A stretch of DNA of 64,000 nt from assembly GCA_001414485.1 (NCBI GenBank), contig LLEY01000024.1:124001-188000 (forward strand). Direction: 5' to 3'. The notes below the pieces were generated by a model. It made no database searches and was not told where the DNA came from. It saw only the letters and a list, made by a program, of their open reading frames with translations. How positions within the stretch are numbered: position 1 is the first letter of the stretch; every line of letters begins with the position of its first letter. Source of the DNA: Calycina herbarum (lineage: Eukaryota > Ascomycota > Leotiomycetes > Helotiales > Pezizellaceae). Shown here piece after piece: positions 6,909-40,134 of this stretch. Position numbers and translations under genes: made by a program.

Positions 6909-7019
6909 TTGTACATCTCACGGAGCTCCTTGCTGAGAGGTGCACTCATGATTGTGCGTTTGACGCTGGATGGCGCATCGTAATAAGCCTTGCGAGACTT
7001 TCTCCGGAAGAAGTGGAGG

Positions 7020-7424: not shown

Positions 7425-9101
7425 TAACGTGTTTTACAAGCGAGTCGCCTATATAAACGGGTCGCCCACTTTCCTCGTCGCGTACTATATACCACTTTTA
7501 AATTATAATAGCTTAATACTATAACGTTTAATTACCTTCTTAAGAAGCTAATATCATTTTAGCAACTTAAGAACTCGAAAATAACACGTTATTAACTAAA
7601 CAAAGCGCTATAAAGATTTACTATATTCTTTAAAAGACTCTCTCTAATCGACGCGCTAGAAAGCCTTTACGACGCGATTACTAGCCTAATTCGAAAAAGC
7701 TTACAAAGCTAGAGGAGGAGGTAATAGTCAGATATATATTAGAGTTAGATTCGCGAGGGTTTTCGCCTATAAGGGATATAGTATAAGATATAGCTAATAA
7801 TCTACTAAGAGAGCGCGACGGAAAGCCTATAAGCAAGAACTAGCTAGATAACTTTATAAAACGTATACCTAAGCTTAAAACTCGATAGAGTCGTTTATAC
7901 GATCGTTAGCGAGCTTTAACTAAGGATCCGCGAGTTATTAGCCTACAGTTTACACTTATATAGTCTATTAAAGAGAAATATAGTATTTAAGATAAGAATA
8001 TTTATAACTTTAACAAAAGTAGCTTTATAATAGGAGTTATTTCGTTCTAACTTATTATTATAAGCTTAGAAGCACGTAGAAAGCGAAAGCAAGTTTAGCT
8101 AGGTAATTATAAGTAGGTTATAGTTATTTAGAGAGTTAACGTAATAGGATAAGTAATTCTACTATTTATTATATTCATAGGTAAAGTACTTATTTCTACC
8201 TAGTACTAAGATATATATATATTATACGATTAGGTAATTAAGGTTAGTAATAACAGCTAGATAAATAATAAGCTTAGAGTTATATAGTTAAAGTATTTTA
8301 ATAAGTATATAAAGATATAAAGTATAGAAGGATATTATTTATTAATTATTAATAGTTATAAAAGCTATAACTTACTTAAATTCTAGTAACTCTATAAAGA
8401 CTTAAATATTATTACTCTCTATATACCTCTATACTTATTATACCTACTATAGCCGCTTAATATAGTCTACTTCTCGCTATTAAAGCGAGTATATAGAGCT
8501 GAGATATTAGGCTTAGTATAGAATTATATTAATTATATTACTAAAGAAACCTTTCTTCTTATATTTAAAGTAGCTTTTTATAAAGCATTTATAAAAGATA
8601 ATATCTATACGAGTTTTAAAGAGGCTAGGCTAGTCCTATATAGCCTAGAAGCTGTGTTATTAAGGCTTGATTTAAGACTTTATATACTAATACTAATAAT
8701 ACTAGAAGACACTCTATAGACACTTAAAACACTAAGTAACGTATATAAAATAATAGCTTAATTAACGCTTATTCAAGATCGGATTTAAAGATATTAAGAC
8801 TCGTTACCTAGTTCTATTATTTAGTCTCTTAATTAACTTGAAAAAGGCTTAACTAGAGTAATATATAATATAGTATTAATATATAAGGAAATTACTAGTC
8901 TTCGTATAATAACTAAGGCTATAACTAAGTATAAAAGTCGTAAGAGGAAGTATATTAAGAGTTAAGAGATATTAATAGTAGGTAACGTAGCTGATTTAAT
9001 TATATCTAAGGAAAATAGTAGCTAGAAACAAGGTAAAAAGTCTAGGAAGAGAGTTCGCGTAGACAGGTACTATAGCTATTATAGTAAAACTAGATATAAT
9101 T

Positions 9102-9333
9102 TATTACGATCTATATCTGAAGGCAAAGGTATAAGAGTATATATATATATATTCGAGAATTTAAAGCTACAGTTCTAAGAACGAGAGAATGTAGAATATA
9201 TACTCTACGAAAAAGAGGTATTCCTACTAACTATAAAAAGCCTTTAATCTCGTTATAAATCCGTCTAAGCGTTGCAGCTTTGACGGTTACGTGTAGGACC
9301 GAGAATCACGTGTTACAGACCAGCGCTATAACA
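9102..9333 (-). repeat. 3' LTR of Gypsy D
   Basis: 232 bp. Its outer end (TATTACGATC) is a RIP-changed form of TGTTACGATC. Its inner end abuts the polypurine tract. Confidence 0.93.
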
Positions 9334-12300: not shown

Positions 12301-14908
12301 GCTATACGATAGAGTATTCGGACCTATAAGTTCGATCTAGTAGTCGACTTAGTTTTATAGTAGAGGAAGCTCGTCTAAAGCTCTCTTTAAAAAGACATCC
12401 TTAAAGTCCGTGTATTCCTAGCAAACGTTCTATTCTACTAGTTGTTCGTCTAAAGCGTAATCTACTAAAGAGAGCTCTATACGTAACCTGTCTATAAGAG
12501 CATAGTCGATCTCTTATAAGCTAGTAGAGAAGACTTCGTTATCGCGCTTTTAAAGGTTAAGTTTAAAAGCAGTAGCTCTAATATAATAGATATTAATAGC
12601 GAAGTCTTCTATAGGTTTACAGATGTCCGTAAGCGAGCTTACAGCTGCTTTACAGTCTATAACTAAACGTTTTCCTAAGAAGGATCGACAACGTTGTTAA
12701 CGGTTAGGAATAAGGACCTATATTCTATTCTAGACAGAGACGAGGTCTTACTAAAAGCTTTCGTCTAGAATTTCCTCGAAAGTAACTAGTAGCAGGGTTT
12801 AGCGCTAGCTTCGAGGTAGTATCGAATAAATTAATATAGGTTCCTCTATAACATTCTAGCAGAGGTCGCGGTTCTCTATATCCTCTTAAGCTTAGAGGTC
12901 TAGTAGGGAGATAGTTATCGATTCCCTAGTAATAGGTACTAAGTAATCAAATCGACAAACCGAGGGAAGGGATTCTAGCTACTTAATCTTACAGCTACGG
13001 ACTACTAACTTTACGTTTACGTCTATAAGCTATTAACAGCCGATAATAATATCGTGTCCACTGATATTAGTAATTAGGAAGGGCGTATTAGTAAACTATC
13101 GTTTATTAATACTTAGCGTTAAGTAAATAACACAAGTAATCGCTAGTCCTTTATATCTATTAAACCCTATAATTAATATTACATATAACAGCTTTTCCGT
13201 AGCCTATCTATAATATTAACTTAACTAGTTAGCTAAAGCTATGTTAATAAATAGCTATCTATTCGCTTTAGTATTAATAAGTCTAGTAGTATTAAAAGCA
13301 TATCTATTCTTAATTAAAGTATATATAGTTATAAAAGCCTTTCCGCCTATTATACGACTTAGATTAAGAGGTTAAGATCTAAGTTTGTTTTACTCTAAAG
13401 AGAAGACTTACTTCAGAGCTGTTCTTTTCCCAAGTCCTTATAAACAAGTTCCTCGTCAGCCGATTCTTCTTCAGACGCTTATAGTCCGTAGGAGTCCGTA
13501 AGCGAGTTTTCAGCGTCTTCTAATAGCTTAATAGCTATAGAGGGTTTTTAAGGAAGAGGGCATTTACTAGCGTAGTGCCCAGGTTCATCGTAATTATAAC
13601 AGATAACGTCTACTATATCCCAGACAGGAGTCGTACTCTTATAAGTAGGCAAAGGAGTCTTATAGTCCGTAACTAGAGAGTAACAGACCGGGCTTTAGGT
13701 TAGCGGATAACTAATAGCAGCACGTAGAGCCGGAAGTTAGTAAGTTAATCTATAGCTGGCAGGGAAACCTCTTATAAGTAGGCGGCGGTTATAGCAAGCT
13801 ATAAGGCGTTTCTTAATAGTTACCCCGTCTTAATAGACAGAGTAACAGCGGTTATATAACTAGTTAAAGGTTGCTAAGGTGATTCGGACTAGCGAGATAC
13901 TTACTTAAAGAGCTGGTATAAGCTTCTAGTATAAATCTTCGGACCACTTACTTAACGGGATATAAGCCTTAGTCGTAAGGCTTAAGAAGGTTGCTTTAAA
14001 CATAGTAAAAGTCTCGTCCTCTTATATTAAGAGTTTATAAAAGACCTTACAAGCCTCTACAGCTTCGTTACTATCTACGAACAAGGTATCTAGATATACA
14101 AGCATATCTATAACGTCTATAAATAAGGTAGAGGAACTGAAATCCATCTATGGTTCTAGGTACTCTTATACTACGTCGGAAGTAGCTATAAAGACGAAGG
14201 TAAGTTTATCTTATTCGTCCTCGAAGAGGTTCTTTCTTATTTTACTAGCTAAGATAATCCGCCAGGCCTTATATAATAAGAAGATGCCGTCCTTAAGTTT
14301 CTCGCTATCTTAGAACTTATAAGTAGAATTATTAGAACTAAATCGGGAACAGGAGGAGTCGGTAGTAACCTCTTAGAGGGCTTATATATACTCGTAGCTT
14401 AGGAGAGGGTTGTTAGAGTGGTTTATAGACAACGGGGTTTGGTAGAGTTACGTATATAAAGAGAGGATTTTAGCTTATAAACGAACGTTTTCGTCTATAG
14501 GAGACTCGCTTATCGTAGGGAAGGCAGGCGAGGGAGGGGCGACTTCAGAGGTGTTATCCGGTTATTAAGGCTCGGTTTAAGATAAGCTAGTAGGTATCTT
14601 CCCTTTTCTACTACGACTACTTCGAGTATCGGCTATTATATTATCGGAAAGGAAGGAGGAGAAGGTAGGGAGAGGTTATAAAAAAAGGTTATATAGGCTG
14701 TTACAGGCATGTCTTTTAAGGAGATGAGTTGTTATAGATGTAGAGATGCTTAAGGGATCCGTTTATAGGAAGAGGGGCCGTTATAGGCGGAGGAGGAGGG
14801 TCGTAATCATACTGTTATAAGTATAAGATCTTCTAGCTATTACGAGCGTAGAATCCAGTCGATATTATAATCCTTTGTAGAGAGTAAAAAGAGTTAAGCT
14901 TTAAATAA

Positions 14909-15140
14909 TGTTATAATCTATATCTAAAGGTAAAGGTATAAGAGTATATATATATATATTCGAGAATTTAAAGCTACAGTTCTAAGAACGAGGGAATGTA
15001 GAATATATACTCTACGAAAAAGAGGTATTCCTACTAACTGTAAAGAGCTTTTAATCTCGTTATAAATCCGTCCAAGCGTTGCGGCTCTGACGGTCACGTG
15101 TAGGACCGAGAATCACGTGTTACGGACCAGCGCCGTAACA
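14909..15140 (-). repeat. 5' LTR of Gypsy D
   Basis: 232 bp, ending GCGCCGTAACA at 15140 next to TSD TAATT. Less mutated than the 9102-9333 copy. Confidence 0.93.
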
Positions 15141-15307
15141 TAATTCTTATACTTATTAGATAGAAATATTAGATATAGAAGATAGCGAAAGTTCTAAAGA
15201 ATACTAGATAGCTTCTATAGTAATAATAACTTTATATAATATTAAGTATTTTATATTATAATAACACTAGGTTGAAAAAGTAGGCAACTCGCTTATGAAA
15301 CACGTTA

Positions 15308-16919
15308 TTACTATAATTATTCTTATAATTATTTAATTAAGTTTCTCTAATAGTTTATTTTTTAACTTTCTATTTTTAATCTTCTAAATACTAATCTATA
15401 AGACTATTCTTAACTACTATATATTTCTATAAATAGATTTATTAGATAGGTTTTTAATAAGTATTTTTAGTATTACTCTAATCTTAAATAGTTTTTCTTT
15501 TAAGTCTTAAAAAGTAATATTAAAAGTAGTAGTTTAATAAATCTTTAAAATTTATTAGAAATTATAAGATTAAGTCTTATTTAGTTATATATAAGAAGAA
15601 TTAAATAAGGTCTAATATTATTAAAGAAAAGAGATTAAATTTAAGTTTTTAAAGAAGGACTCGGAGAGGTTCTTAGATTCGTTATTATTACCGCGAAGGC
15701 CTTCGGTAAGGAGGGTAAGATTACTCTTTCGTCGGTTTTCGCGGGAGGATGTAATGTACTCGACGATTCGTTTTTAGAGAGAGAGGGTAAGCTTTCGAGA
15801 GTGATTGTAGAACTTCTTACAAGTTAAGAGAGGGGTGTCTAGAACGAGGTCTATTCTAACAGTTAACAAGCTCTTATAAAGGCCCTCCACGCGTTCCACC
15901 ACTCCGAGTCCGCTGCCCACTCTCTTTTACTCTTTGGCGTATATCCTAGACTACTCTAGCAGTAACTAGGACGTTGGGGAGGGTCGGGTTCGTCTATAGA
16001 CACGCTTCTGTAACGGCACGAAACAGACAATACTATGAAAGAGGCATATGGAAGTGCGTTCCATAGAATAACATGTTTGGATACTAGGCTCTAAACACGA
16101 AGGAAAAGACCAAATTGGTCTTCCTAGTAGAGAGAGTAAGAGCATCTATATACAAGAGGTCGGACAATAACAAAGTCCGAAACCTATCCGGCACGTAACC
16201 TCGGCAATTCCGATGGCTGGCTATCACAGCTTCTTATACAGAGTCCTATATTCCTAAAGATGAGACAATTCTCTACGAGTTGTCCTGTATTCTAGGGTCC
16301 TGCCCTTAGATCTTCGAGGTTTTGTAGGCATAATAATGTGTGGTGGTTTAATAATTAATAATTAAGGAATGTAAACAAAAGATGGTGTTGAAACCGACAG
16401 CGCTCGGTCCCCCTCGTGGCACTCAGTACATACCTGCCCTGTATTCTCTCGAAGCTTTGGTTCTTGTCACCTGGTCTCTTATAAGCACTTTCGAGAACCA
16501 ACCTATCACTGAACTCGTAGAAAATGATTTTAAACCTCATCTCTATTCTCGCGTCTCTCGGTAAATTGTGAAGGTAGCATCTCGAAAAGTCTGGTTTATC
16601 GTCGTTGTCATCCATGCTTTGTATCCCATTCACAGTCTCTGTCCAGGTCTGCATTTTCGATCTCGATGCAAGCCATTCCACGCCCTTTACTCATTAGGTG
16701 TATGTGTTCCATGGTAGAGGTGAGTGTTGTTAGATATTCTTGCGGGAAAGAGCGACATGCCGTTGTTCAAGCTGGATTCCTGCTGCTGCAGCCTTTGTAT
16801 ACGAGAACAGAGGAGCTTGATGACTAACAATCCCGAGGTAATTCGATCGCTGTTCACATGTTCACGAAACACGACTTTTCCCACCATCCCTCCCATCTCA
16901 AAGAACATCACAATCGCAG
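15308..16919. other. AT-rich relic grading into unassigned normal-GC sequence
   Basis: 15308-15650 is AT-rich, starts with remains of the GATTATTC array and has no recognisable coding content. From about 15650 to 16900 composition is near normal. I see no supported gene: a 108-codon minus frame (16355-16681) has no family resemblance. A palindrome ACCAAATTGGT lies near 16110. The last part should hold the promoter of the FunK1 gene. Confidence 0.5.
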
Positions 16920-19321
16920 ATGGAGCTTGTCACCATGACGGATCAGGCCCAGTCAGAGATCCTTGAGCATAATCCTATTGGGAAAGGTCTTGATGCCTTT
17001 TGCGCCGCTTTCAATTCAATTTGTGAAGACAGAACTATTTCCTGCACTCCGGACGCGCTCCGTCAGCTTGCTCAAGAAGGTAAGATAGTCTGGCGTCGGT
17101 TTAAGTACCTCCTGTCTAACTCATATAGAGATATCCAGACTCTTACTATCGGTCTCCTCTCTGCTCTACTACATCTCCCTGCGATTCGTCTCCTACAGTC
17201 AAAGACAAGTCATGGCACCCTTCAAACCGATCTCGTGAGACTCATTTCCGCCGTCACCTCCGACAACTTCTACTTCGACCGTACTACACCTCTCTTGACT
17301 GCGGCCCTCACCGACAATCAGGACGATGCACTTATCTGGTATCACGTCTACAACGCCGTCACCGAATCCACCCCACCTCCCCAATCCTTACCATCTTCCT
17401 TCCCACAAATCCCATTGATGCGCAACACGAGCAGCTTCGCGAATTCGTCTGAACATCGCAAGTACGTGGATGCTGTGCTAAAGGAGGAGCTCGGCCATAT
17501 ATACGTCGGGCTCTGGAACTTCCACGAGACATTTCTCGGTGGCGTGGCAGATCTTCCAACGGGCATCCAAGGCCGTTTTCAAGAAGTGTAGAGAAGGCAG
17601 AAATCCACTCTTTCACAAAGGATGGAGTGGATGGCCGGAAAAAGCGAATCAGGATGATGTCTTGGACTGGTTTGCGGACTTGTGTGGGCAACTGGCGGAG
17701 TTTGCGGGGGATCACGGGCCAAAGGCGACTAGAAGGCCACTGGCACAGGCCAACAAGCCGGTTGAAGGTTCCACGGCGGAGCGCAAGCTGGACATTGGCT
17801 TCGTCAGCAACTCTCAAGCTGGGAAAGACTCTCGATGCCACTGGTCGCAGATCCTTGTACCCGGAGAACTGAAGAGCAACCCGTCTGCCGACACAGCTTC
17901 GCAGACATGGCTTGACCTTGGGAGATATGCAAGAGAGGTGCTCGCTGCTCAAGACACTCGTCGCTTCGTTTTGGGCTTTACCATCTGCGGATCTCTTATG
18001 AGGATATGGGAGTTTGACCGGCTTGGGGGGATCGCATCTAAACAATTCGACATCAACGAAGATGGCCTGCAGTTTGTGTCTACAATCCTCGCGTTTCTCT
18101 GGACGAATGAGGAACAACTTGGGTTCGATCCCACAGTTATCACAGAAAATGGCCAGCGGTTTATTGAGATTCAACGGAATGGTCTTACGGAGCGGCTCAT
18201 CATCGACGGGTTGATAATGCGGGCGAGTTGCATATCCGGCCGGGCAACGACTTGCTGGAAGGCACATCGCGAGGGAGACCCGCAGACACTGCTTGTTATC
18301 AAGGACTCCTGGCAGTACACAGAGCGTGAGGAAGGAGAGCTGCTCCGAGAGGCGACTGAAAAGGGTGTTGTCAACGTGGCCCGATACTATCACTATGAGA
18401 CTGTCAGGGTCCTCGGTACGGATGACGACGTTCGAAGCAATGTTCGGAAGGGACTGGATATCATGAAGGCGGAAAACTACCGGCCGCGACGTTCGATGAT
18501 ATCCTCAAGCACGAGTATAGCTGGTGCACGGACAGTTCGCACCGCTGGCTTGAAGCGGTTATCTAGTCAGACTGGCGCACCTTTGCCGCCTAGCAAGCGA
18601 TCCTGTCCGACATCTCCGACGAAGGCTGGCAGCAATGCTCTACCAAATCGAGTGCATCGGCGTGTCATCGTTCGTGATTATGGGAGGCCCATCTACAAGG
18701 CTAGCTCCCCAGCAGCTCTACTTGCCGCGCTGGAGGGCTGCATTGAAGGGCACGAGTCCTTGCGTAAGGCCGGCTTCCTTCACAGAGACATCTTAACCAA
18801 CAACCTCATGATGAATGAAGACAAAGAGAACCCTTCCTGGCCTTCTTTCTTGATCGACCTCGACCTTGCGATCAAAGAAACACGGAGGGAGGCTTCCGGT
18901 GCCAAAGGCAGGACTGGCACGAGGGCTTTCATGGCCATCGGGGCCCTCCTTGGCGAGCAGCATTCATTTATGCATGACCTCGAGTCGATGTTCTGGGTGC
19001 TTTTCTGGATCTGCATTCAATATGATGGACCAAATCAGGGAAGGGTTGTTCTACAATTCGACAAGTGGAACTACCTGGACATGAAAGAGTTGGCCATACT
19101 GAAATTAGGCACTGTGACGAATGAGGCAATTTTCATGAAGATCGTCACTGATACCTTCACTTCTTATTTCGAGCCGCTTATTCCATGAGTGAACAAGCTG
19201 CGGAAAATTGTCTTCCCGAGAGGCGGGCAGCACGAACAGGAAGACGAAAGGCTCTACCCTCGAATGAAAGGGATTCTCCGGGAGGCATGCGAGGACTTGA
19301 CTAGATAGACAAGCGTGATAG
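16920..19321 (+). pseudogene. FunK1 fungal-type protein kinase with one frameshift and one nonsense codon
   Basis: Homologue of the large fungal FunK1 kinase family (Pkinase_fungal), which is multicopy in many fungi. The N-terminal half (16920 to about 17560) includes HETFLGGVADL. The rest (about 17556-19188) has the family segments GELKSNPSADTASQTWLDLG and FVLGFTICGSLMRIWEFDRL. Kinase motifs are LVIKDSW (ATP Lys), LHRDILTNNLMM (catalytic loop), FLIDLDLA (DFG replaced by DLD) and GTRAFMA. Two lesions are visible. One extra C near 17558 shifts the frame between GGVADL and RASKAVFKKC. A TGA at 19186-19188 stands where the family has Trp, after which VNKLRKIVFPRGG..EDERLYPRMK continues in frame to a TAG near 19308. 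A spliceable intron (GTAAGA..ATAG, about 17082-17129) is also possible. Confidence 0.88.
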
Positions 19322-19529: not shown

Positions 19530-19645
19530 ATGGAGTTTAACTGGCTTAGGGGGATCATCGTATCTAAACAATTCGATATTAACGAAGATAGCCTACAGTT
19601 TGTATCTATAATCCTCGCGTTTCTCTAGATAAATGAGGAATAAGA
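19530..19645 (+). pseudogene. RIP-mutated fragment of a FunK1 gene
   Basis: About 115 bp that align to 18008-18122 of the neighbouring kinase gene. Nearly all differences are C to T or G to A (for example GACATC to GATATT, TGGACG to TAGATA, GTGTCT to GTATCT), plus a 3-bp gain. It creates TAG and TAA. This is a short, isolated, RIP-scarred copy. Confidence 0.88.
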
Positions 19646-20433: not shown

Positions 20434-21831
20434 ATGGAAATGGAAATGGGAATGGCGGACGAGCTTCAGCTTCAAATGGCGGACGAGCTAAGAATGGCGG
20501 TTCCAGAAGCAGACCAGATGCAATTCGCGCAACTCTGGGCTCTGCACACCCAACTCCTCGAACGAGGCAAAGTTACCTTCTTCCTCACCGAAGGCATGGT
20601 ATCCGCGATGGAGGATGGGGGCAAGAGTGGTGGTGTGCGACCCGCCGCCGACAAGTTATGGTGAGTTCCGAGTTCCTAACCCTCATCCTAACCCGAGTCT
20701 GTGTGGTACCCCAAATGAAATGAAATTCCATTCACAGCTTTGCTGATAAGAGAAGATCCCCTTTGCTAATAATAATCTGATCTCCCCTTATAGCGCACTC
20801 CTGAACGACGACATCTACGTCCACTTCGATCCGACGGCGCGCGCGTACCGCATCGGCCCGATCGCGGATCAGTACGACTTTTTTGCCACGGCGCGACACG
20901 TGCTGGTGTACTGCAAGGAGAGACCGCGGCTTCAACCAACAACATCAACATCAACGACCATGCCCAGCGTGATGATGGTGGGCCGGACGGAAACGAACAC
21001 GATGACGCCCCACATGACGCTCGGCCAAGCCCCACACATCCAGCAGCACATCCAGCAGCACATCCAGCGGGAGATATGGAGCGAGTTGTTTGCCACCGCT
21101 GGTAGGGAAGGCACTGGCACTGGCACTGGCACGACTGAGAAGGCTGAGAAGGCTGAGAAGGCTGGCACGAAGATTTCCAAACCCTCCAACGCCTGGATCC
21201 TCTACCGCAAGTCCAAGCACCGTGTCGTCGCGCAGGAGAACCCGGGCATGCACACCAGCGAGATTTGTAAGTTTTTTAGTTTTCACTTTTGTACCGCCGG
21301 CCTGGCGGCCGGCCAGGCCGGTTGGAGTTGAGGAGTCGTTGGCAGGTGGTGGCTTAGGCGTAGTTTTCACTTTTGTACTTTTTGTACTTTTTAGGCTGGT
21401 TTACCTGGTTACTTGGGTACTGGTGACTGGTGGCTGGTTGGTTAACTGGTTACTTGGTTACGTTTTTGGCTGATAAAGGCTAATAGAATTTAATGGAATT
21501 TGGCTAATACAATTTAGCCATTGTCATTGGGAATATGTGGAAGCAGGAGAGTGAACGGGTTAAGGGGTTTTGGCATCGGAAGGCCGACTACGAAAAGGTC
21601 ATGCACTCCATTCGATACCCCGACTACAAGACTCGCCCTCGCAAGTCCTCCGAAATCAAACGACGCACGAAGAAGATCACCGAAATACGGGTTGCGGCTC
21701 CAATTCTTTCACTGCCTACATCAACTCTTCGACCTCGAGTAAGCAACAAGATCGATACTCTCTTGTCACTTCAGTCCATTCACCAAAACGACATGGAAGC
21801 TTTCATGGCGAATATCAAGGGTGGTATGTAA
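20434..21831 (+). CDS. MAT-type HMG-box protein (MAT1-1-3 or MAT1-2-1-like)
   Basis: Three exons (20434-20660, 20794-21266, 21518-21831) give 337 residues. The HMG box spans about residues 205-285. It starts ISKPSNAWILYRKSKH, continues NPGMHTSEIS|IVIGNMW with the intron inside the Ser codon, and ends YPDYKTRPRKSSEIKRR. This intron position in a Ser codon is the hallmark of ascomycete mating-type HMG genes. The N-terminal domain (FLTEGMVSAM, NDDIYVHFDP, QYDFFATARHVLVY) resembles N-domains of MAT HMG proteins but has no MAT1-2-1 signature that I can recognise. That fits MAT1-1-3, the HMG gene of the MAT1-1 idiomorph in several leotiomycetes; this is inference. The second intron and the start of exon 3 form the left 291-bp inverted repeat. 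Role if functional: nuclear transcription factor of sexual development. Confidence 0.75.
21296..21586 (+). repeat. Left arm of a perfect 291-bp inverted repeat
   Basis: Base-for-base reverse complement of 23007-23297. It starts with a GCCGGCC-rich palindromic segment in intron 2 of the HMG gene, covers the splice acceptor, and ends inside the HMG box after KGFWHRKA. The next base differs between arms (A versus C). Confidence 0.97.
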
Positions 21832-21964
21832 GGTATATAAAGCAGGATTGTGGTTTGTGTATAAAGCAGATTAGGGATTATATATAAAGCACCCGTTTTA
21901 TTGCCTTTACTTTTACTTTTTGGGCTCCCGCTTTATATATATACAAATCCTATATAAATCCATC

Positions 21965-23058
21965 TCACACGTACCAGCCCCGAGACCGCGCGAACATGTA
22001 GCAGCCCTCCGAGATAGCATCAGTATCAGGGCTGGGTGTATCGTCAACAAGCCCAACATCATCAACCGCTACCAGACTTGCTGCTGCTGCTGCTGCCTTC
22101 TTCTTGGCTACCAGAGTTGCTTCTGCTTCTGCTTCTGCTTCTTCCGCTTTCTTCTCCTCCTCCTTCCCCTTCTTCTTGGCTTCTCCTTTCTTCGTCGTCG
22201 TCATCCGTCGCTTCTTCTCCCACGCCTTGCGAGGCTGATACTGGTAACGTGGGTATTGGAGGGCGTGTTGGGACTTGGCCTGGTCGGCCTGCGCCTTGAA
22301 GTGCGCCGTGACATCCTCGGATTCTTCGCCCCACATCTTGCCAATGATTTGAGCTGTTTTTTGTGTATCAGCGGCATTGCAATATCAAACGTGGGCCACG
22401 CTGAACTTACAAATCTGATTATTATGCACCCCGGCGTTTTGCGCCACCACACGCGCGTGATGATGTTTGCGATACAAGATGAAGGCATTGGGTGGACGAG
22501 GAATCTTTTTTTTCTTTTCGTTAGAAGCACTTTCAGACATGGGTTCAGTTTCAGTTTCAGTTTCCTTGGCATCGACATCAGCATCCGAGGGCGAGGGCGC
22601 AAACGCAAACTCGTTGAACTTGATGCCATTTCCGGGGAAAAAAAGCCGGCCTGGCCGGCCAGGCCGGCTTGGAGTCGAGGAGTCGTTGGCAGGTGGCGGT
22701 GGCGGTAGGAGGTGAGGAACCTCACCACCACTGGCATGATGCAGAACATTTTGCGAATGGAAAAATTCCACCGGCCCAAGGAAGGTGCGGGGTTGGGCAT
22801 AGTCCTTGACGAAGATTCCCTCGGCACCAGTCATGTCGCTAGGAAACGATTGTCAGCTTGGAAAGATAGTCATGGTGAAGAAGATACGTACCTGAAAGCA
22901 GCAAGGATGGCAAATTCCTCTTCTGGAAGCCAATTTTCAAACTCGAAGTTGGGAATCGCGACGAGGCAATTCGAGGGTGTAATTTGAAGGCGCAAGATGC
23001 ACTCAGCGGCCTTCCGATGCCAAAACCCCTTAACCCGTTCACTCTCCTGCTTCCACAT
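21965..23058 (-). CDS. MAT1-2-1: MAT1-2-1-like HMG-box mating-type protein
   Basis: Exons 22892-23058, 22411-22838 and 21965-22353 give 327 residues with all phases matching. The HMG box is IPRPPNAFILYRKHHHARVV, then VHNNQIS|QIIGKMWGEES with a 57-bp intron in the Ser codon, then YPRYQYQPRKAWEKKRR. The N-terminal part (NCLVAIPNFEFENWL, TGAEGIFVKDY, LGPVEFFHSQN) follows the order of conserved segments in MAT1-2-1 (mat a-1) proteins. The C-terminal tail is Lys/Glu- and Ala-rich. The only in-frame start lies in the right inverted repeat: ATG 23058, giving MWKQESERVKGFWHRKA, which is HMG-box coding sequence of the convergent gene. The native N-terminus and promoter therefore seem to have been replaced. 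Expression is unproven. Stops of the two genes are 133 bp apart. Confidence 0.72.
22645..22668. repeat. 24-bp perfect palindrome, GCCGGCCTGGCC half-site
   Basis: A perfect palindrome inside MAT1-2-1 exon 2, encoding an Arg/Pro/Gly run. Similar palindromic GGCCGGCC segments sit at the outer ends of both inverted-repeat arms, so the motif occurs three times in 2 kb. Confidence 0.85.
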
Positions 23059-23297
23059 ATTCCCAATGACAATGGCTAAATTGTATTAGCCAAATTCCAT
23101 TAAATTCTATTAGCCTTTATCAGCCAAAAACGTAACCAAGTAACCAGTTAACCAACCAGCCACCAGTCACCAGTACCCAAGTAACCAGGTAAACCAGCCT
23201 AAAAAGTACAAAAAGTACAAAAGTGAAAACTACGCCTAAGCCACCACCTGCCAACGACTCCTCAACTCCAACCGGCCTGGCCGGCCGCCAGGCCGGC
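23007..23297 (-). repeat. Right arm of the perfect 291-bp inverted repeat
   Basis: Exact reverse complement of 21296-21586. The inner border is at the codon following HRKA in MAT1-2-1 exon 1. The outer border is in the GGCCGGCC segment, after which sequence matching MAT1-2-1 exon 2 continues for about 29 bp (to 23326). Confidence 0.97.
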
Positions 23298-23326
23298 TTT
23301 TTTTCCCCGGAAATGGCATCAAGTTT
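23248..23326 (+). repeat. Inverted third copy of a MAT1-2-1 exon 2 segment
   Basis: Plus strand CCACCTGCCAACGACTCCTC through TTCCCCGGAAATGGCATC matches the sense strand of MAT1-2-1 exon 2 (complement of about 22622-22702) with few changes. It overlaps the outer end of the right repeat arm. Confidence 0.85.
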
Positions 23327-23413
23327 ACGAAGGCCAACCAAACAAGTAATGAGCCATTAGTCCGTGCGTACGTCACGTGCATAAACCACTTTAACGTGAT
23401 AATCAACTCAATT

Positions 23414-24001
23414 ATGGCTCCACCGCACCCCTATATTGATGAAGCGCGTGCGGGAGCCTTTCTCAATGATCTTAAGAATGGCTATACGATTCCAGATGCA
23501 GCGCGCGATACAGATATCAACGTCAAAACAGCTAGAGGGATCAAAAGGCGTGCTGACGAGATAACCATCTTTAACGACGAGCACAACCTCCCTCCTCCTA
23601 CCCTTCATGAGCGTCTCGTAAAGCGGGCAAAGTCTGGAAGGCCTTACGCTCTATCGGAGCTCGACTTAAATACCCTTGACGTCGCTATATCGTCCGACCG
23701 CCATCACCGCGAGCTACAGTTCTCTGAAGTCGCTGAAGAAGTCGACATACATGCCTCCAAAACAGCGATTGCGCAAGCCGCACACGAACTTAGATACAAC
23801 CGAGTCAAGCCGACGAAAAAGCTAGACCTTACGGATATACAAGAAGCTATACGATACGAGATTGCGTTGTCGCGGAAGGATTGGACATTGGAAGACTGGA
23901 AGAAGGTTGTCTTTTCAGATGAAGCTGCAATCCTTGTAGGGGAACACCGTGGGCGCCATCTTATCTCACGAAAGCCGGAGGAACGATACGAGCCTGATTA
24001 G
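23414..24001 (+). pseudogene. Tc1-type transposase, N-terminal fragment
   Basis: 195 codons from ATG 23414 (an upstream in-frame ATG lies at 23396). A helix-turn-helix DNA-binding part (FLNDLKNGYTIPDAARDTDI) is followed by a second HTH-like region and WKKVVFSDEAAILVGEHRG, where SDEA holds the first catalytic Asp of the DDE domain. Translation stops at DERYEPD-like YEPD, where family members continue for 200 or more residues. No RIP-type stops lie in the surviving part and base composition is normal, unlike the other transposons here. No terminal repeats were found. It ends 66 bp before the caspase-domain ATG. Confidence 0.85.
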
Positions 24002-24066
24002 GTTTTCCACGCTCGGATACCCACTCTTTATTCATTGTCTTCCAGTCAGTGATCCATACAATTGTC

Positions 24067-24780
24067 ATGGCCGACGAAGCTGGTGTTGCCACCACCCACT
24101 GGGCAATTTTAATCGGAATCAATTTTTACGTGGGAGATCAATGCCTCCATGACAGTGTGCGAGACGTGGAGATGGTCAAACAGTATCTAGAGGCAGGACG
24201 TACGCCAGTGGACGTCGCCATCCTCACTGCAACATCGCCTTCAGACCCCAGCTCTCGCCGTCCGATCGAGGATCCAGATATGTGGCCAACGTGCAAAAAT
24301 GTGATCGCAAGACTCAAGAGAGTCCTGGAGAAGGCGAAGCGGGGGGATTTCGTATACATTCACTATTCGGGTCATGGAACGCGGAGGAAAGATGCCGAGG
24401 AATACAGCCATCAGTCTGGGAACCTGGCTTTTGTTCTTTTCGAGGATAACGAACACGGCAGCAGCTATCTCAGAGGCCTAGACTTGGCAAAATGCCTCCG
24501 CAAGATGGTGGCACAAGGACTTCTTGTCACCGTCGTTCTCGACTGCTGTCACTCGGGGAGTGTCCTACGGGGCGCCAACATACAAGGCGTCGGTGTCTGG
24601 GCTATTGACTACGACCCTGCCGTCGACGCTGCGTCCCCACAGGAGCCTTATGAAGGGTCCTTTAACTCAGACAACACTCTGCGCAACGCCCAGATGCCAC
24701 TAGAACAGTGGCTTGTCGACCCTGACGGGTATACGATCCTAGCCGCCTCCGGTCCACAGGAAAAGGCATGGGAGAAGTGA
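24067..24780 (+). pseudogene. Caspase-domain (peptidase C14) protein, C-terminally truncated
   Basis: 237 codons from ATG 24067 (an in-frame ATG at 24049 is possible). The caspase p20-like fold is visible: HWAILIGINFYVGDQCLHD at the start, catalytic His in YIHYSGHGTR, catalytic Cys in VVLDCCHSGS, and YTILAASGPQEKAWE at the end, where relatives continue with the p10 part. The dyad is intact. Translation stops at 24780, 65 bp before an LTR fragment, so the 3' half was probably lost to rearrangement. Family members in fungi are metacaspase-like peptidases, often in multicopy accessory genes linked to cell death. Activity of this stub is doubtful. Confidence 0.85.
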
Positions 24781-24956: not shown

Positions 24957-25685
24957 TGTTACAGCGCTGGTCCGTAACCTGGAAGAAATACACGTGACAA
25001 CACGTGACCTCGGTAATCACCTCAGGAGGTATAAATCTATAACGAGAGCTATAGCTTATACGAGTTTTTAACTACTTATAGCTTATACTTACTTAGTAAC
25101 CTCTTTCCTCTAGGTATATAACCTGTATTATCTTCGTAGATAGAACTATAGTGTCACGAATCACGTGTTATCACGTGAAAGAAGTGAAGTCCAGGCGACG
25201 CCCTGACAGGACAAATACTATTGTAACCCTGAAAGGAAGAAGGGATTAAATGTAGAAGGACATGTAATCCTAGGGATCTTATTACAGTTATATCACGTGA
25301 CTCGGTTAGGAGCAGTCAGGTGATAGAGTCCAGTTTTGAGGAGCCCTAGAAATAGAGTCGGACTCTATCTTCGGGACTCCTACTAAGCAGGACTCTAAAC
25401 ATAAACGAAGGTTCTATATAAGACTAGCACGTCTGCGATTAGATAGAAGCTTTATACTTAACTTTAGTTATTAATCTTATTATCTTATTTAATAACCTTA
25501 ATATAAGTAATAAGTTCACTTCTAAGTAAATAACCCGGCGTATCTATACTTCTTACTTATATCCTAACCTTCGAGACTTAGTTATCTTTGTTTAGTTCGT
25601 TTAAGTTTCGTTATATATAGCTTTAAATTCTCGTATTTATATATATATACTCTTATATCTTTACCTTTAGTTATAGTTTATAATA
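24957..25685 (+). repeat. Variant Gypsy LTR, split by a solo LTR
   Basis: Starts TGTTACAGCGCTGGTCCGTAAC and ends with the same CTTTAAATTCTCG..TTATAATA tail as the 232-bp Gypsy LTRs, with a different middle. The part 25152-25615 plus one TATAG is a later insertion. No clear target duplication is seen. Confidence 0.7.
25152..25615 (+). repeat. Solo LTR of the C family, TSD TATAG
   Basis: 464 bp, TGTCACGAATCACGTG to TTTCGTTATA, flanked by TATAG at 25147-25151 and 25616-25620. It interrupts the Gypsy-type LTR. Confidence 0.92.
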
Positions 25686-26132
25686 AAAAGAATAGCTTAG
25701 AAATTAAAAGATACTAAGCCAGCTCCGCGGAATCTAGCTTAACTATTCTAGGCTATTATAGAGACTAAATAGACAGCTTTAAAAGCGAGGAAGAACTTAA
25801 TCTTTATAATATAGTTAATATAAGCTTTAATAAAAGTCTTAATTTAGTAACTATATACCCGCTTTAGTATACTAAAATATCTAATATCTAGTAGCTAGGT
25901 TAAATAAGAAGAGTAAGAAGGTAGACTAAGAGTAATAATATTATATATCTTATAGTACTCTTAGAATTTAGTAGATTTATAACTCTTATATTTATTAAGA
26001 ATAAGTATCTAATATAGACTTTTTACTTAAGTAGAAGTAAACTTATTCAAGTACTAAAGCTATTCTAGACCTATCTTATTATTTGTCTATCTATTACTTA
26101 TAAGCTTAATAACCTATTTATATAAGAGGTAG
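25686..26132. other. AT-rich unassigned relic
   Basis: Strongly AT-rich, stops in all frames, no recognisable domain. Presumably RIP-degraded transposon sequence. Confidence 0.5.
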
Positions 26133-26590
26133 TATTATAAATCACGTGCTAGCACGTAACTAAGTAAAGTCTAGACAACGCTCTAATAGAATAAGTACTA
26201 TTAGAACCTAAGAAAAGAGGATTAAATATATTAGATATATAATCTATAGATCTTATTATAGGCATATCACGTGACTCGGTTAGGAGTAGTCAGGTAATAG
26301 AGTCTAGTTTTAAGAGCCCTAGAATTAGAGTCGGACTCTATATTCAGGACTTCTATAGAATAGAACTCTAAAAAAGAGAACGAAGGTTTTATATAAAACT
26401 AGTACGTCTACTATTAAATAGAAGCTTCGTATTTAACTTTAGTTATTAATCTTATTATCTTATTTAATATCTTTAATATAAGTAATAAGTTTACTTTTAA
26501 GTAAATAACCTAGTATATTTATACTTCTTACTTATATACTAACCTTCGAGACTTAGTTACCTTTATTTAGTCTATTTAAGTTTCGTTATA
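26133..26590 (+). repeat. 5' LTR of element C
   Basis: 458 bp, RIP-shifted relative of the 3375-3808 solo LTR. Begins TATTATAAATCACGTG and ends TTTCGTTATA. Confidence 0.88.
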
Positions 26591-27080
26591 CTTTAAATAC
26601 CTACTTAGAAGTATAATCGCTACTATATCAACTACTTTCTCTATCTTAAAAACAACTCTATCTAAACCAGCTATAGCTACTACGACTATACTAGTTACTA
26701 CTCTCTATAAAGAAGTAAAGCTTCTAATTCCGAAGTTATTTAATAGCTTACTTAAAAAACTAGCTAAGTTTCTTATAAAAGCTTCTTTATACTTAAACTT
26801 TTATACTACTTAGTTTAGAAATAAAACCGATTAGGTTATATAGTTATCTATCTATCTTAAAAGAGTAGCTTATAACTAGTTAGAACTATATTTAGAGGAT
26901 TTTTAGAAGAATAAAATAATTAAAAGAAAAGTCTTATTATAAATATCTAAAAAGACGAGAGACTTATTCTAGAATATCTAAAGGTTTAAGAATAGAATTA
27001 ACTAAGCTTTTAAAGATATTAATATAAAGAAAAAAGTAGTTAGAGCTTTATACTTACTTAAATAAAAGAGGTCAGCTATT

Positions 27081-27312
27081 TATTACAGCGCTGGTCTATA
27101 ACACGTGATTCTCGGTCCTACACGTGACCGTCAGAGCCGCAACGCTTGGACGGATTTATAACGAGATTAAAAGCTCTTTATAGTTAGTAGGAATACCTCT
27201 TTTTCGTAGAGTATATATTCTGTATTCTCTTGTTCTTAGAACTATAGCTTTAAATTCTCGAATATATATATATATACTCTTATATCTTTGCCTTTAGATA
27301 TACATTATAATA
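27081..27312 (+). repeat. 5' LTR of Gypsy A
   Basis: 232 bp, TATTACAGCG to TTATAATA; the ends are RIP-altered TG..CA. Confidence 0.92.
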
Positions 27313-30300
27313 TTATTTAAAGCTTAACCCTTTTTACTCTCTACGAAGGATTATAATATCGACTAGATTCTATACTTATAATAGCTAGAAGATCTTATAC
27401 TTGTAATAGTATAATTATAACTCTTCTCCTTTGTCTATAATAGCCTCTCTTTCTATAAACAGATCCCTCGAGTATCTCTATATCTATAACGACTTATCTC
27501 CTCGAAAGACACGCTTATAATAGCCTATATAACCTTTTTTTATAACCTCTCTCTACCTTCTCCTTCTTTCTTTCTAATAATATAATAGCTAATACTTGAA
27601 GTAGTTATAGTAGAAAAGAGAAGACACCTACTAGCTCGTCTTAAACCGAGTCTTAATAACCGGATAATACCTCTAGAGTCGCTCTTCTCTCGCCTACCTT
27701 CTCTGCGATAAGCGAGCCTTCTATAGACGAAAACGTTCGTTTATAAGCTAAAATCCTCTCTTTATATACGTAACTCTACTAAACCCCGTTGCTTATAAAC
27801 TACTCTAATAACTCTCTCCTAAGCTACGAGTATATATAAGCCTTTTAAGAGGCTACTACTAACTTCTCCTATTCCTGATTTAGTTCTAATAATTCTACTT
27901 ATAAGTTCTAGAATAGTAAGAAACTTAAGAACAGTATCTTCTTATTATATAAGGCCTAGTAGATTATCCTAGCTAGTAAAATAAGAAAGAACCTCTTTAA
28001 GAACGACTAAGATAAACTTACCTTCGTCTTTATAGCTACTTCCGGTATAGTATAAGAGTACCTAGAACTATAGATAGATTTCAGTTCCTCTATCTTATTT
28101 ATAGATATTATAGATATACTTATATATCTAGATACCTTATTCGTAGATAGTAACGAAGCTATAGAGGCCTATAAGGTCTTCTATAAACTCTTAATATAAG
28201 AGGACAAGACTTTTACTATATTTAAAGCAACCTTCTTAAGCCTTATAACTAAGGCTTATATCCTATTAAGTAAGTAGTCTAAAGATTTATACTAGAAGCT
28301 TACGCTAGCTCTCTAAGTAAGTATCTTACTAGTTTAAATCACTCTAGTAACCTTTAACCAGTTATATAACCGCTGTTACTCTATCTATTAAGACAGAGTA
28401 ACTATTAAGGAACGTCTTATAGCTTACTATAACCGCTGCCTACTTATAAGAGGTTTCCTTATTAGCTATAGATTAACTTACTAACTTCTAGCTCTATATA
28501 CTACTATTAGTTATCTACTAATCTAAAGCCTAGTCTATTACTCTCTAGTTATAGACTATAAGACTCCTTTACCTACTTATAAGAGTACGACTTCTATCTA
28601 GGATATAGTAGATATTATCTATTATAATTATAATAAACCTAGGTACTATACTAGTAAATACTCTCTTCCTTAAAAACCCTCTACAGCTATTAAGCTATTA
28701 GAAGACGCTAAAAACTCGCTTATAAACTCCTACAAACTACAAGCGTCTAAAGAAGAATCAGCTAATAAGGAACTCGTCTATAAGAACTTAGAAAAAGAAC
28801 AACTCTAAAGCAAGTCTCCTCTTTAGAGTAAAATAAACTTAGATCTTAACCTCTTAATCTAAGTCGTATAATAGATAGAAAGGCTTTTATAACTATATAT
28901 ACTTTAATTAAGAATAGATATACTTTTAATACTACTAGACTTATTAATACTAGAGTAAATAAATAGCTATTTATTAATATAGCTTTAGCTAACTAGTTAA
29001 GTTAATATTATAAATAGGCTATAGAAAAGCTATTATATATAATATTAATTATAGAGTTTAATAGATATAAAGAACTAGCGATTACTTATATTATTCGCTT
29101 AATACTAAGTATTAATAAACAATAGTTTACTAATACGCCCTTTCTAATTACTAATATTAGTAGATATAATATTATTATTAGCTATTAATAGCTTATAGAC
29201 GTAAACGTAAAGTTAGTAGTCTATAGCTATAAGATTAAGTAGCTAGAATCTCTTCCCCTAGTTTATTAATTCGATTACTTAGTATCTATTATTAGAGAAT
29301 CAATAACTATCTCTCTACTAGACCTCTAGGCTTAGAAGGATATAGAGAACCGCGACCTCTACTAGAATACTATAGAGGAACCTATATTAATCTATTCGAT
29401 ACTACCTCGAAGCTAGTACTAAACCCCGCTACTAGTTACTCTTAAGGAAATTCTAGACGAAAGCTTTTAGTAAGACCTTATCTCTGTCTAGAATAGAATA
29501 TAGGTTCTTATTTCTAACTACTAATAACGTTGTCGATCCTCCTTAGGAAAACGTTTAGTTATAGACTATAAAGCAGCTATAAGCTCGCTTATAGATATCT
29601 ATAAACCTATAGAAGACTTTGTTATTAATATCTATTATATTAGAGCTACCTCTTTTAAACTTAACCTTTAAAAGCGCGATAATAAAGTCTTCTCTACTAG
29701 CTTATAAGAGATCGACTATGCTCTTATAGACAGGTTACGTATAGAGCTCTCTTTAGTAGATTACGCTTTAGACGAATAACTAGTAGAATAGAACGTTCGC
29801 TAGGAATATATAGACTTCAAAGATGTCTTTTTAAAGAGAGCTTTAGACGAGCTTCCTTTACTACGAAACTAAGTCGACTACTGGATCGAACTTATAAGTC
29901 TAAATACCCTATCGTATAGCCTATTATATAGGATAACAACTAAGGAACTTCTAGCTATAAAGTAGTATATTCTTAATAACCTCGATAAAGGGTTTATTAT
30001 TCCTAGCTACGCCTCTTTCGCCTCTCTAGTACTGTTCGTAAAGAAGCCTAACAGAAGCTTATAGCTCTATATCGACTATCGGAAACTTAATAACCTTACT
30101 TATAAGAACCAGCACCCTCTTCCGCTAATCGACGAAACTCTTATACGAATCACTAGTACTAAAATCCTTATAAAGCTCGACATTCGTTAAGCTTTTAACT
30201 ATATACGTATAGAACTAGAGTTAGAAGAACTTATAACCTTTTAAACCTATTATAATACGTTTAAATATAAGGTGTTACCTTTTAGCTTAACCAACGGTCC

Positions 30301-32277
30301 TACTACGTACTAGAGGTATATAAATAGCGTTCTTATAGAATATCTTAATAACTTTTATATAGCTTACCTTAATAACATTCTTATATACTCTAATAATAAG
30401 CTTAAATATGTTAAACACGTTTATAAGGTTTTAGAATAGCTCTATAAAGCTAGGCTATAAGTAGATATTAAGAAGATAGAGTTCTATATTACTTATATAA
30501 AGTACCTTAGTTTTATTATCTTTATAGATAGAATCGAAGCTAACCTAGAGAAGATCTTAGTAATCGTTTCTTAGAAATATCCTAGTACTATTAAGAGTAT
30601 CTAGTCCTTTCTAAGTTTTTATAACTTTTACTAACGTTTTATTTAGAATTATAAATAGATTACTCGTCTACTAAACTATCTTATAAGTAAGGAAGTACTA
30701 TTTAAGTTTAACTTAGAATATAAGAAGGCTTTTAATATATTAAAAGAAGTCTTAGTTACTACCTCTCTCTTATACTACTTTATAGCTGATTTAGAGACTA
30801 TAGTTAAGACTAATGCTTCTAATAGAGTAGTTATAGTTATAATATTATAACGTATATCTAAAACTGAACTATAGAGACTTATAAGCTACTTCTTAAAGAC
30901 GATAAACCCTACTAAGCTAAACTACTAAATCTACGATAAGGAGATGTTAGCTATTATATACTTTTTTAGATAATAGCGAGCGAATCTTACTTAGACTAGC
31001 TCTTAGATTAAGGTCTTTACTAATTATAAGGCTTTAGAGTACTTTATAATCTCTAAAACCTTAAACTAGTAGTAAGCGAGATAGGTAGAGTTTCTATTAG
31101 AGTTCTATTTTATAATTATATTTTAATCTAGTAAGTAGAATAAGAAAACGAATACGCTAATACACTAAGACTAAGACGTTAACCTATAAAACGACCTAAA
31201 AGCGTCTATAAGATAATAAACCTTACTTACGTCTAATTAGTTAGATCTACGTATTACTACTTAATTAGAACCTCCTATAACGTTAGCCCTAGTTACTTTA
31301 GAACCCTTGCTTAACCTTGTTAACTAGTTACTTACTACTAACTATAACTCTTTAGACTTAGAAGACGACTAAACGAAAGCTACTTATAAGTACTAAAACT
31401 AGATAATAGAGAATAGCTTACTTCTTTAGTAAAAGAGACTCGTAGTTCTTAATTAAGACACCTTATAGACGAACCTAATCTATAAGGCTTATATATAAGT
31501 ATCTATAGCTTATCTTAGACGGATAAAGACAGTAGCTATCCTTACTTATAGATACTAGTAGAAAGGTTTACAGACGTTTATAAAAACCTATATTAGTAAC
31601 TACGGAGACTATTAATATACTACGGTTTCTTATAACTATAAACCTAGGTTTTTATACCTATTACTAGTTCTAGAACGTCTCTAGTAGTATATTATTATAG
31701 ACTATAAGTCTTTCCCTACTAATAAATAAGGTTATAATATCTTATAAGTAGTTATAGATCGTCTAACTAAGTAATCAGTCTCGATCCCCTATCTAAAGAC
31801 AGTTATAGCCTAAGATATAGCTCGAATATACGTTATATAGATCTATTAAACCTATAGCTATCTATAAAGTATTATTTTAGACTATAGACTATAGTTTATT
31901 TCTTCTTTCTAGTTTAAATTCTATAAAATCCTTAGTATAAAGCTTAAGCTATCTACTACTTTCTACTTATAAACTAATAGATAAACTGAAATTATAAACT
32001 AATAGATTAATCAACGCCTATAGTCTTTTATTAGTTACTATTAGAACAACTAGAGCAAACTTATCTCTATTCTAGACTACGCTTAGCTTACGCTTCTATA
32101 TAAGAGTCTAGGTAGACTCTCGCCTTTTAAAGTAATTAATAGATACGTAGCTACTATGTTCTTTAATTAGAACTGTCTAGATAAATCTATAACAGTCTAT
32201 AAACAGCTTAACCGAACCGATGTAGAGATACTCGTACGAAGAATATACGATACTTAGACCGTAGTAAAGGAATTAGT

Positions 32278-32509
32278 TATTACGGCGCTGGTCCGTAACA
32301 CGTGATTCTCAGTCCTACACGTGACCGTCAGAGCTGCAACGCTTGGACGGATTTATAACGAGATTAAAGGCTCTTTATAGTTAGTAGGAATACTCCTTTT
32401 TTATAGAGTATATATTCTGTATTCCCTCGTTCTTAGAACTATAGCTTTAAATTCTTAAATATATATATATATACTCTTATACCTTTACCTTCAGTTATAG
32501 ATTATAATA
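32278..32509 (+). repeat. 5' LTR of Gypsy B
   Basis: 232 bp, starts TATTACGGCGCTGGTCCG, ends TTATAATA. Confidence 0.92.
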
Positions 32510-39991: not shown

Positions 39992-40134
39992 CCTTCTTCT
40001 GTAATTTCATCAATTCTACAAGTATACGACGAACTATCGGATGACTGGCGATTACTTAGCAGAAGGAATATACATTTGTTTTTTACATCTCGTCTCAACA
40101 AGTATTATAGTACAACACATATCTTACATATCTC

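What the first reader, a model, noticed from the sequence alone, without database searches (positions are those of the whole stretch)
21296..23297. Candidate inverting MAT-type locus: perfect 291-bp inverted repeats joining two convergent HMG genes
Seen: 21296-21586 and 23007-23297 are exact reverse complements around a 1,420-bp core. The left arm cuts the HMG box of the plus-strand gene after HRKA. Flipping the core would replace the second half of that HMG box by the MAT1-2-1-like gene, in frame (HRKA then AECILRLQ), and leave the other HMG half without a start. Known: in Sclerotinia sclerotiorum a MAT segment between short inverted repeats inverts during meiosis. Inference: this is an analogous two-state switch at a different breakpoint.
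Basis: partly seen in the sequence, partly recalled or inferred. Interest (0 to 1): 0.92.

Follow-up and report, generated by a model that had tools for sequence, protein, structure and literature searches.

The report
Flippable fungal mating-type gene switch
In a fungus likely related to the ash-dieback genus, two mating-type genes stand tail to tail with perfect 291-base mirror-image repeats cutting into the first gene and heading the second, and flipping the DNA between the repeats is predicted to put the second gene behind the first one's control region, so the locus likely works as a two-way mating switch, although no flipped copy has yet been seen.

Summary
21296-21586 and 23007-23297 are exact 291-bp reverse complements around a 1,420-bp core. 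The plus gene is an intact MAT1-1-3, the minus gene a MAT1-2-1, both closest to Hymenoscyphus proteins. The left arm is native to MAT1-1-3. The right arm is a copy that replaces the native 5' end of MAT1-2-1, which relatives keep and a decayed relic elsewhere in the genome still shows. Flipping the core would join the MAT1-1-3 promoter, exons 1-2 and half its HMG box in frame to MAT1-2-1 (566 aa). No alpha-box MAT1-1-1 was found. I read this as an inversion switch like that of Sclerotinia sclerotiorum, with different parts (HMG versus HMG) and a reciprocal exchange of 5' ends. Inversion itself is not shown: one assembly, one orientation, and perfect arms may merely be young. A 2023 survey reports this gene set for H. 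herbarum and leaves its sexuality unclear; my paper searches listed no inversion for it.

The parts
20434..21831 (+). MAT1-1-3 gene, exons 20434-20660, 20794-21266, 21518-21831; 337 aa; HMG box split by an intron in a Ser codon
   Evidence: 39% identity over 98% of the query to H. fraxineus MAT1-1-3; groups with it 100/100 in the HMG tree
21296..21586 (+). Left arm of the inverted repeat: 222 bp of MAT1-1-3 intron 2 (with its 3' splice site) plus 69 bp of exon 3; native to MAT1-1-3
   Evidence: homology to H. fraxineus MAT1-1-3 continues across the inner arm edge
21587..23006 (.). 1,420-bp core between the arms, the segment predicted to invert
21965..23058 (-). MAT1-2-1 gene as assembled: 23058-22892, 22838-22411, 22353-21965; 327 aa if begun at the ATG inside the right arm; native N-terminus missing
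   Evidence: 52% identity over 84% of the query to H. albidus MAT1-2-1; in the genome search the match to that protein starts at its residue 25, five bases core-side of the arm edge; the whole-protein BLASTP stretches it weakly to residue 17 through a six-residue gap
23007..23297 (-). Right arm: inverted copy of the MAT1-1-3 piece, in place of the native MAT1-2-1 5' end
23298..23325 (-). 28-bp scrap of MAT1-2-1 coding sequence outside the right arm; with 11 arm bases it matches 22617-22655 exactly; reads as a recombination junction
22617..22699 (+). Third copy of the GC-rich motif with its flank, inside the MAT1-2-1 coding sequence, in direct orientation to the left arm
   Evidence: three matches of its core pattern in the genome with up to two mismatches allowed, all exact and all at this locus
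21278..21378 (+). 17-bp direct repeats (21278-21294, 21362-21378) around the motif in MAT1-1-3 intron 2, as if the motif had been inserted there
23414..24001 (+). Open frame divergent from MAT1-2-1, its first ATG 356 bp from the candidate MAT1-2-1 ATG; resembles a Tc1-like transposase fragment by eye, no Pfam hit
   Evidence: the Tc1 likeness is recalled and comes from no call

Best explanation
Two convergent mating-type genes, MAT1-1-3 and MAT1-2-1, carry perfect 291-bp inverted repeats, one inside MAT1-1-3 and one at the head of MAT1-2-1, and recombination between them would likely flip the 1.4-kb core so that the 3' part of MAT1-1-3 and MAT1-2-1 take turns behind the predicted MAT1-1-3 promoter and its first exons. 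Shown: the arms, the two genes, the native position of the left arm in MAT1-1-3, the lack of the native MAT1-2-1 5' end at the right arm, the open in-frame 566-aa fusion in the flipped arrangement, and no alpha-box gene found in the assembly. Inferred: in state 1 (as assembled) full MAT1-1-3 is made and MAT1-2-1 is silent or weak for lack of its own promoter and start. Inferred: in state 2 (flipped) the MAT1-1-3 N-terminal domain and half HMG box are fused to a MAT1-2-1 with an intact HMG box, while the MAT1-1-3 3' half loses promoter and native start. Inferred: the flip is made by homologous recombination around the sexual cycle, as proposed for S. sclerotiorum, so that one strain yields both mating states.
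For: Exact 291/291 arms. Arm A native: H. fraxineus MAT1-1-3 aligns across the inner edge, 59% identity over its residues 190-253. Arm B is a replacement: in the genome search the match to H. albidus MAT1-2-1 begins at residue 25, five bases from the arm edge; the match of Cudoniella P0040 begins at its residue 30; a relic on C359 matches residues 6-66 of the H. albidus protein, with three stops, and its DNA match to the window, 98 of 116 bases, ends exactly at the arm edge. Between the candidate MAT1-2-1 ATG and the divergent frame's first ATG lie 355 bp, 239 of them the MAT1-1-3 copy (coordinates). Both reading frames and their splice sites are intact. Precedent: in S. sclerotiorum 250-bp identical inverted repeats made from a MAT gene fragment flank a 3.6-kb region inverted in every meiotic generation. 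Signs of a sexual history: both pheromone-receptor families match, and the AT-rich flanks carry RIP-like dinucleotide ratios.
Against: No flipped copy was found in the assembly. None of the 89 proteins gathered spans both the MAT1-1-3 and the MAT1-2-1 N-terminal parts; the three searches are of limited depth: searches scored only the candidates sharing most words, and one search missed P0001, a clear relative. The identity of the arms can be mere youth: the 28 bp outside the arm, which inversion would not homogenise, are also identical to their source. The in-frame join has a one-in-three chance. A start inside arm B could allow MAT1-2-1 to be made without any flip. A whole-protein BLASTP runs weakly over the arm edge to residue 17 of H. 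albidus MAT1-2-1. The second halves of both HMG boxes score 22-23 bits, under the Pfam cut-off of 25.4 when scanned alone. The first STE3 piece holds one stop, perhaps an intron. The alpha-box search had no positive control. Assembly and sequencing method are unknown.
Confidence: 0.5

Rival explanations
1. Static homothallic locus: a young inverted duplication cut off the MAT1-2-1 5' end once, the orientation is fixed, and both genes are expressed as assembled, MAT1-2-1 from the ATG inside arm B.
For: An in-frame ATG at 23058 gives a 327-aa frame. The assembled orientation keeps MAT1-1-3 collinear with its H. fraxineus relative. Youth alone explains identical arms and the identical 28-bp junction scrap.
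Against: The upstream space is 355 bp, mostly MAT1-1-3 intron copy. A 1.4-kb core between perfect 291-bp arms is a plausible substrate for recombination, and the region between the 250-bp arms of S. sclerotiorum does invert.
Confidence: 0.3
2. Relict locus: the rearrangement broke MAT1-2-1 and the fungus no longer mates through this locus.
For: Native MAT1-2-1 N-terminus not at the locus; no MAT1-1-1 found; scraps of both genes elsewhere on C359 and C113.
Against: Both genes keep long open frames and splice sites, unlike the C359 scrap, which carries three stops. STE2 and STE3 families match, the STE3 match with one stop inside.
Confidence: 0.12
3. Assembly artefact: the arm was duplicated or the core misjoined, for instance from a mixed or dikaryotic sample.
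For: Read data and assembly method are not available. The survey paper warns of mixed cultures in some such genomes.
Against: The contig is 528 kb. The right arm has different sequence on both sides, including a recombinant 28-bp junction that a simple collapse would not make. The single core holds the 3' ends of both genes, 133 bp apart (coordinates).
Confidence: 0.08

Closest known systems
Sclerotinia sclerotiorum MAT inversion (Inv-/Inv+; PMC3574095: abstract, part 1 of 3 of the Discussion and two passages read; Ciboria shiraiana is said to suggest the same in PMC10569646, passages read)
   Same: Class Leotiomycetes (here judged by nearest relatives); both idiomorph genes at one locus; identical inverted repeats of 250-300 bp that are a fragment of a MAT1-1 gene; a flip would truncate that gene.
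   Different: There the repeat is part of MAT1-1-1, the flip covers 3.6 kb, only MAT1-1-1 is truncated, and both orientations were found. Here the repeat is part of MAT1-1-3, the core is 1.4 kb, no MAT1-1-1 was found, the second arm sits at the 5' end of MAT1-2-1 so a flip would exchange the 5' ends of two genes, and only one orientation is known.
Lachnellula HMG-only mating system (PMC10569646, passages read)
   Same: MAT1-1-3 and MAT1-2-1 without MAT1-1-1: two HMG proteins as the only mating genes.
   Different: In Lachnellula the two genes are in different isolates; here both are on one contig, and part of one and nearly all of the other lie in one segment that could invert.
Hymenoscyphus herbarum gene set (PMC10569646, passages read)
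   Same: Intact MAT1-1-3 and MAT1-2-1, no MAT1-1-1; the authors could not say whether it is sexual. The window may come from this species or a sibling; I could not test that.
   Different: No inverted repeat or inversion is mentioned for it in the passages read; the survey's stated sign of switching was identical repeats and/or MAT1-1-1 fragments beside the MAT1-2 genes.
Flip-flop mating-type switching of methylotrophic yeasts (PMC6692504, search listing only; details recalled)
   Same: Inversion between inverted repeats is the switch.
   Different: There, as recalled, inversion moves whole genes between an expressed and a silenced place; here the 3' part of a gene would be exchanged behind one promoter.
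DNA-inversion switches of bacteria and phages with a constant N-terminal half and alternative C-terminal halves (recalled, no call)
   Same: One promoter and one 5' half serve two alternative 3' halves.
   Different: Those, as recalled, use a site-specific recombinase; here 291-bp homology suggests homologous recombination.

Membership tests
MAT1-1-3 | HMG box and grouping with a named MAT1-1-3 | tested here: met
   Pfam HMG_box, first half 28.7 bits (over the 25.4 cut-off), second half 22.4 (under it) scanned apart; 39% to H. fraxineus MAT1-1-3, the only hit among 3513 candidates; 100/100 in an HMG tree of 25 rows
MAT1-2-1 | HMG box and grouping with a named MAT1-2-1 | tested here: met
   Pfam HMG_box 31.1 and 23.2 bits for the two halves; best of 38 hits is H. 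albidus MAT1-2-1; joined to it with 91/82 in an 85/88 group with Tricladium and Cudoniella proteins, both below the tree tool's mark for strong support
MAT1-2-1 | native N-terminus | tested here: not met
   not at the locus; residues 6-66 match only a relic with three stops on C359
S. sclerotiorum-type MAT inversion | MAT1-1 and MAT1-2 genes at one locus | tested here: met
S. sclerotiorum-type MAT inversion | identical inverted repeats derived from a MAT1-1 gene | tested here: met
   291/291; derived from MAT1-1-3, not MAT1-1-1
S. sclerotiorum-type MAT inversion | repeat lies in an alpha-box MAT1-1-1 | tested here: not met
   the repeat lies in MAT1-1-3; no PF04769 match over the cut-off in the genome, one 22.6-bit match to a separate HMG-box frame only
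S. sclerotiorum-type MAT inversion | both orientations occur, about 1:1 in meiotic progeny | not testable with these tools
   one assembly, no reads, no progeny
Canonical Leotiomycete MAT locus | flanked by SLA2 and APN2 | tested here: not met
   the SLA2 (I_LWEQ) match is on C130. The two GRF matches are on C315 and C212; none of 5 frames scanned there has a nuclease domain, so APN2 was not located
Lachnellula-type HMG-only mating | no MAT1-1-1 | tested here: inconclusive
   none found, but one assembly and one profile without a positive control
Lachnellula-type HMG-only mating | the two genes in separate isolates | tested here: not met
   both in one contig

The most novel reading that the evidence does not exclude
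A eukaryotic gene-swap switch: one promoter and one 5' gene half with two exchangeable 3' halves, flipped by inverted repeats, alternates between a complete MAT1-1-3 and a chimeric MAT1-1-3/MAT1-2-1 protein, and so specifies both mating states with HMG-box proteins alone in a fungus that has lost the alpha-box gene.
Probability: 0.33. Interest if true: 0.9.

Novelty: new variant of a known kind. Interest (0 to 1): 0.74.

Why it matters
A 2023 survey left open whether a Hymenoscyphus species with MAT1-1-3 and MAT1-2-1 but no MAT1-1-1 can mate at all (PMC10569646, passages). This locus offers a testable answer: selfing by inversion between two HMG-only states. It would likely be another origin of inversion switching in Leotiomycetes, built from a different gene, and it would make the purpose of MAT inversion plain, since which gene stands behind the intact promoter would depend on orientation.

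Tried and rejected
Alpha-box gene: PF04769 over the genome gave no match at 0.001, and at E 10 only a 22.6-bit match on C352 to a frame that also matches HMG_box. The 14 control genomes did not ring, so absence is not proven.

Fused relatives: of 89 proteins gathered in the three protein searches, 1 matches the MAT1-1-3 N-terminal part, 2 match the MAT1-2-1 N-terminal part, none both. No sign of the flipped state elsewhere; but one search missed P0001, so these searches can miss relatives.

Second MAT copy in opposite orientation: not found in the assembly. The other traces found are one-exon scraps on C359 and C113.

Dating the arms: not possible. The identity of the 28-bp flank speaks, weakly, for youth rather than for repeated homogenisation.

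Transposon end at the right arm: a genome search with 23280-24100 found no other copy of the divergent frame, so I could not show that a transposon insertion set the outer edge.

HMG tree: 25 rows, 23 of them chosen by hand from the 87 database HMG regions long enough (of 89 proteins), plus the two of the window.

Species: not identified. Nearest named proteins are of Hymenoscyphus; identity with H. herbarum is a guess from its gene set.

The bacterial promoter scan does not apply to a fungus and was ignored.

Paper searches for novelty: (one search showed 6 of 11). Judged by titles, starts of abstracts and the two papers opened, none describes an inversion built on MAT1-1-3. Most subscription papers are not in that library, including (recalled) a study of H. 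fraxineus and H. albidus MAT genes.

Full report
Observation. The two arms are exact reverse complements over 291 bp, and the next base differs on both the outer and the inner side. The core is 1,420 bp. A search of the 68.8-Mb assembly (379 contigs, window = C157:124001-188000) finds the full arm only at these two places, and a 93% match of part of it (the GC-rich motif) inside the core. It is the only perfect pair among the 16 inverted-repeat pairs of 40 nt or more listed for the window.

The genes. The plus gene has exons 20434-20660, 20794-21266 and 21518-21831 and encodes 337 aa. Its only hit among 3513 candidates is H. fraxineus MAT1-1-3, 39% over 98% of the query. The minus gene, from the ATG at 23058, has pieces 23058-22892, 22838-22411 and 22353-21965 and encodes 327 aa. 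Its best of 38 hits is H. albidus MAT1-2-1, 52% over 84%. Scanned apart, the first halves of the two HMG boxes pass the Pfam cut-off of 25.4 bits (28.7 and 31.1) and the second halves do not (22.4 and 23.2). In a tree of 25 HMG boxes, chosen by hand, the plus gene groups with H. fraxineus MAT1-1-3 (100/100) and the minus gene with H. albidus MAT1-2-1 (91/82, below the tool's mark for strong support). In both genes an intron splits a serine codon in the HMG box. The stop codons face each other, 133 bp apart.

What the arms are. The left arm is 222 bp of MAT1-1-3 intron 2 plus 69 bp of exon 3. H. fraxineus MAT1-1-3 aligns across its inner edge (residues 190-253, 59%), so this copy is in its native place. 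The right arm is the derived copy. In the genome search the match of the minus gene to H. albidus MAT1-2-1 starts at residue 25, five bases core-side of the arm edge. A whole-protein BLASTP stretches it to residue 17 through a six-residue gap with few matches, which I take for a chance extension. The H. albidus protein has 24 residues before that point, and the match of Cudoniella acicularis P0040 begins at its residue 30. A scrap on contig C359 matches residues 6-66 of the H. albidus protein with three stop codons; its DNA match to the window, 98 of 116 bases, ends exactly at the arm edge. So the native 5' end of MAT1-2-1 existed in this lineage and is replaced at this locus by the right arm.

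A recombination scar. A GC-rich motif occurs three times at the locus, and its core pattern nowhere else in the genome with up to two mismatches: in both arms and inside the MAT1-2-1 coding sequence (22617-22699 with its flank). In the left arm it lies between 17-bp direct repeats, 21278-21294 and 21362-21378, as if inserted into the intron. Just outside the right arm, 28 bp (23298-23325) are MAT1-2-1 coding sequence identical to the flank of the inner motif. The right arm with this flank thus reads as a recombinant of the MAT1-2-1 flank and the MAT1-1-3 arm, joined in the motif. That this motif seeded the rearrangement is inference.

Two states. As assembled, MAT1-1-3 has its upstream region and all exons, while MAT1-2-1 begins in the right arm; 355 bp lie between its candidate ATG and the first ATG of the divergent frame (23414), 239 of them arm sequence. 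In the flipped order the MAT1-1-3 exons 1-2, the intron and the start of exon 3 run in frame into MAT1-2-1: 566 aa with a truncated first HMG box and a complete second one. The MAT1-1-3 3' half would keep only a 98-aa frame from the ATG in the arm. Promoter positions are inferred, and which of these proteins is made is untested.

Setting. No alpha-box gene was found (the control genomes did not ring, so this is not proof). SLA2 is on C130; APN2 was not located. STE2 and STE3 receptor families match, the STE3 match with one stop inside, perhaps an intron. The gene island of about 16.8-25 kb lies between AT-rich blocks (7000-16000 and 25000-40000) with TpA/ApT of 1.72 and 1.83 and CpA-type index of 0.31 and 0.20, against 0.96 and 0.69, and 1.07 and 1.24, in the outer parts 1-6500 and 40100-64000; the arm itself has 1.67 but an index of 1.0, so only one of the two signs. 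The flanks resemble RIP, which (recalled) acts before meiosis, and so hint at a sexual past.

Comparison. S. sclerotiorum has 250-bp identical inverted repeats made from MAT1-1-1, a 3.6-kb flip and both orientations at 1:1 in progeny (PMC3574095: abstract, part 1 of 3 of the Discussion and two passages read). The MAT structure of Ciboria shiraiana is said to suggest the same, and Lachnellula is reported to have MAT1-1-3 and MAT1-2-1 in different isolates without MAT1-1-1 (PMC10569646, passages read). The window combines features of the two. The same paper states that H. herbarum has intact MAT1-1-3 and MAT1-2-1 but no MAT1-1-1 and that its sexuality is unclear. I suspect, without test, that the window is that species or a sibling. 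Searches, judged by titles and starts of abstracts, listed no paper on an inversion built on MAT1-1-3.

Limits. There is one assembly in one orientation. Perfect arms can be young instead of exchanging. No protein among the 89 gathered spans the fusion, though the searches were of limited depth and one search missed P0001. I put the inversion switch at 0.5, a static homothallic locus at 0.3, a relict at 0.12 and an artefact at 0.08.

Noticed in passing
window 7000-16000 and 25000-40000: AT-rich blocks with strong RIP-like dinucleotide ratios flank the mating-type island and hold diverged inverted repeats of each other (for example 9939-15138 against 27083-32282, 5,200 nt, 90%): likely degraded retroelements in opposite orientation, not tested.
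   Followed up: partly
L007 (C359:162307-162489): Decayed scrap of MAT1-2-1 exon 1 with the native N-terminus, three stops.
   Followed up: yes
L051 (C113:108600-108722): Scrap of MAT1-1-3 exon 1, 110 of 135 bases identical to the window, no stop in the 41 aligned codons; its neighbours were not identified.
   Followed up: partly
window 17482-19188: Open frame with a fungal kinase domain (PF17667, E 5.7e-142); an 87-bp piece of it (18031-18117) is repeated at 19557-19643, 87%.
   Followed up: no
window 23998-24780: Open frame with a caspase-like domain (PF00656), followed by AT-rich sequence.
   Followed up: no
C157:288602-288859 (L032): Another HMG-box match on the same contig, about 141 kb away.
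   Followed up: no
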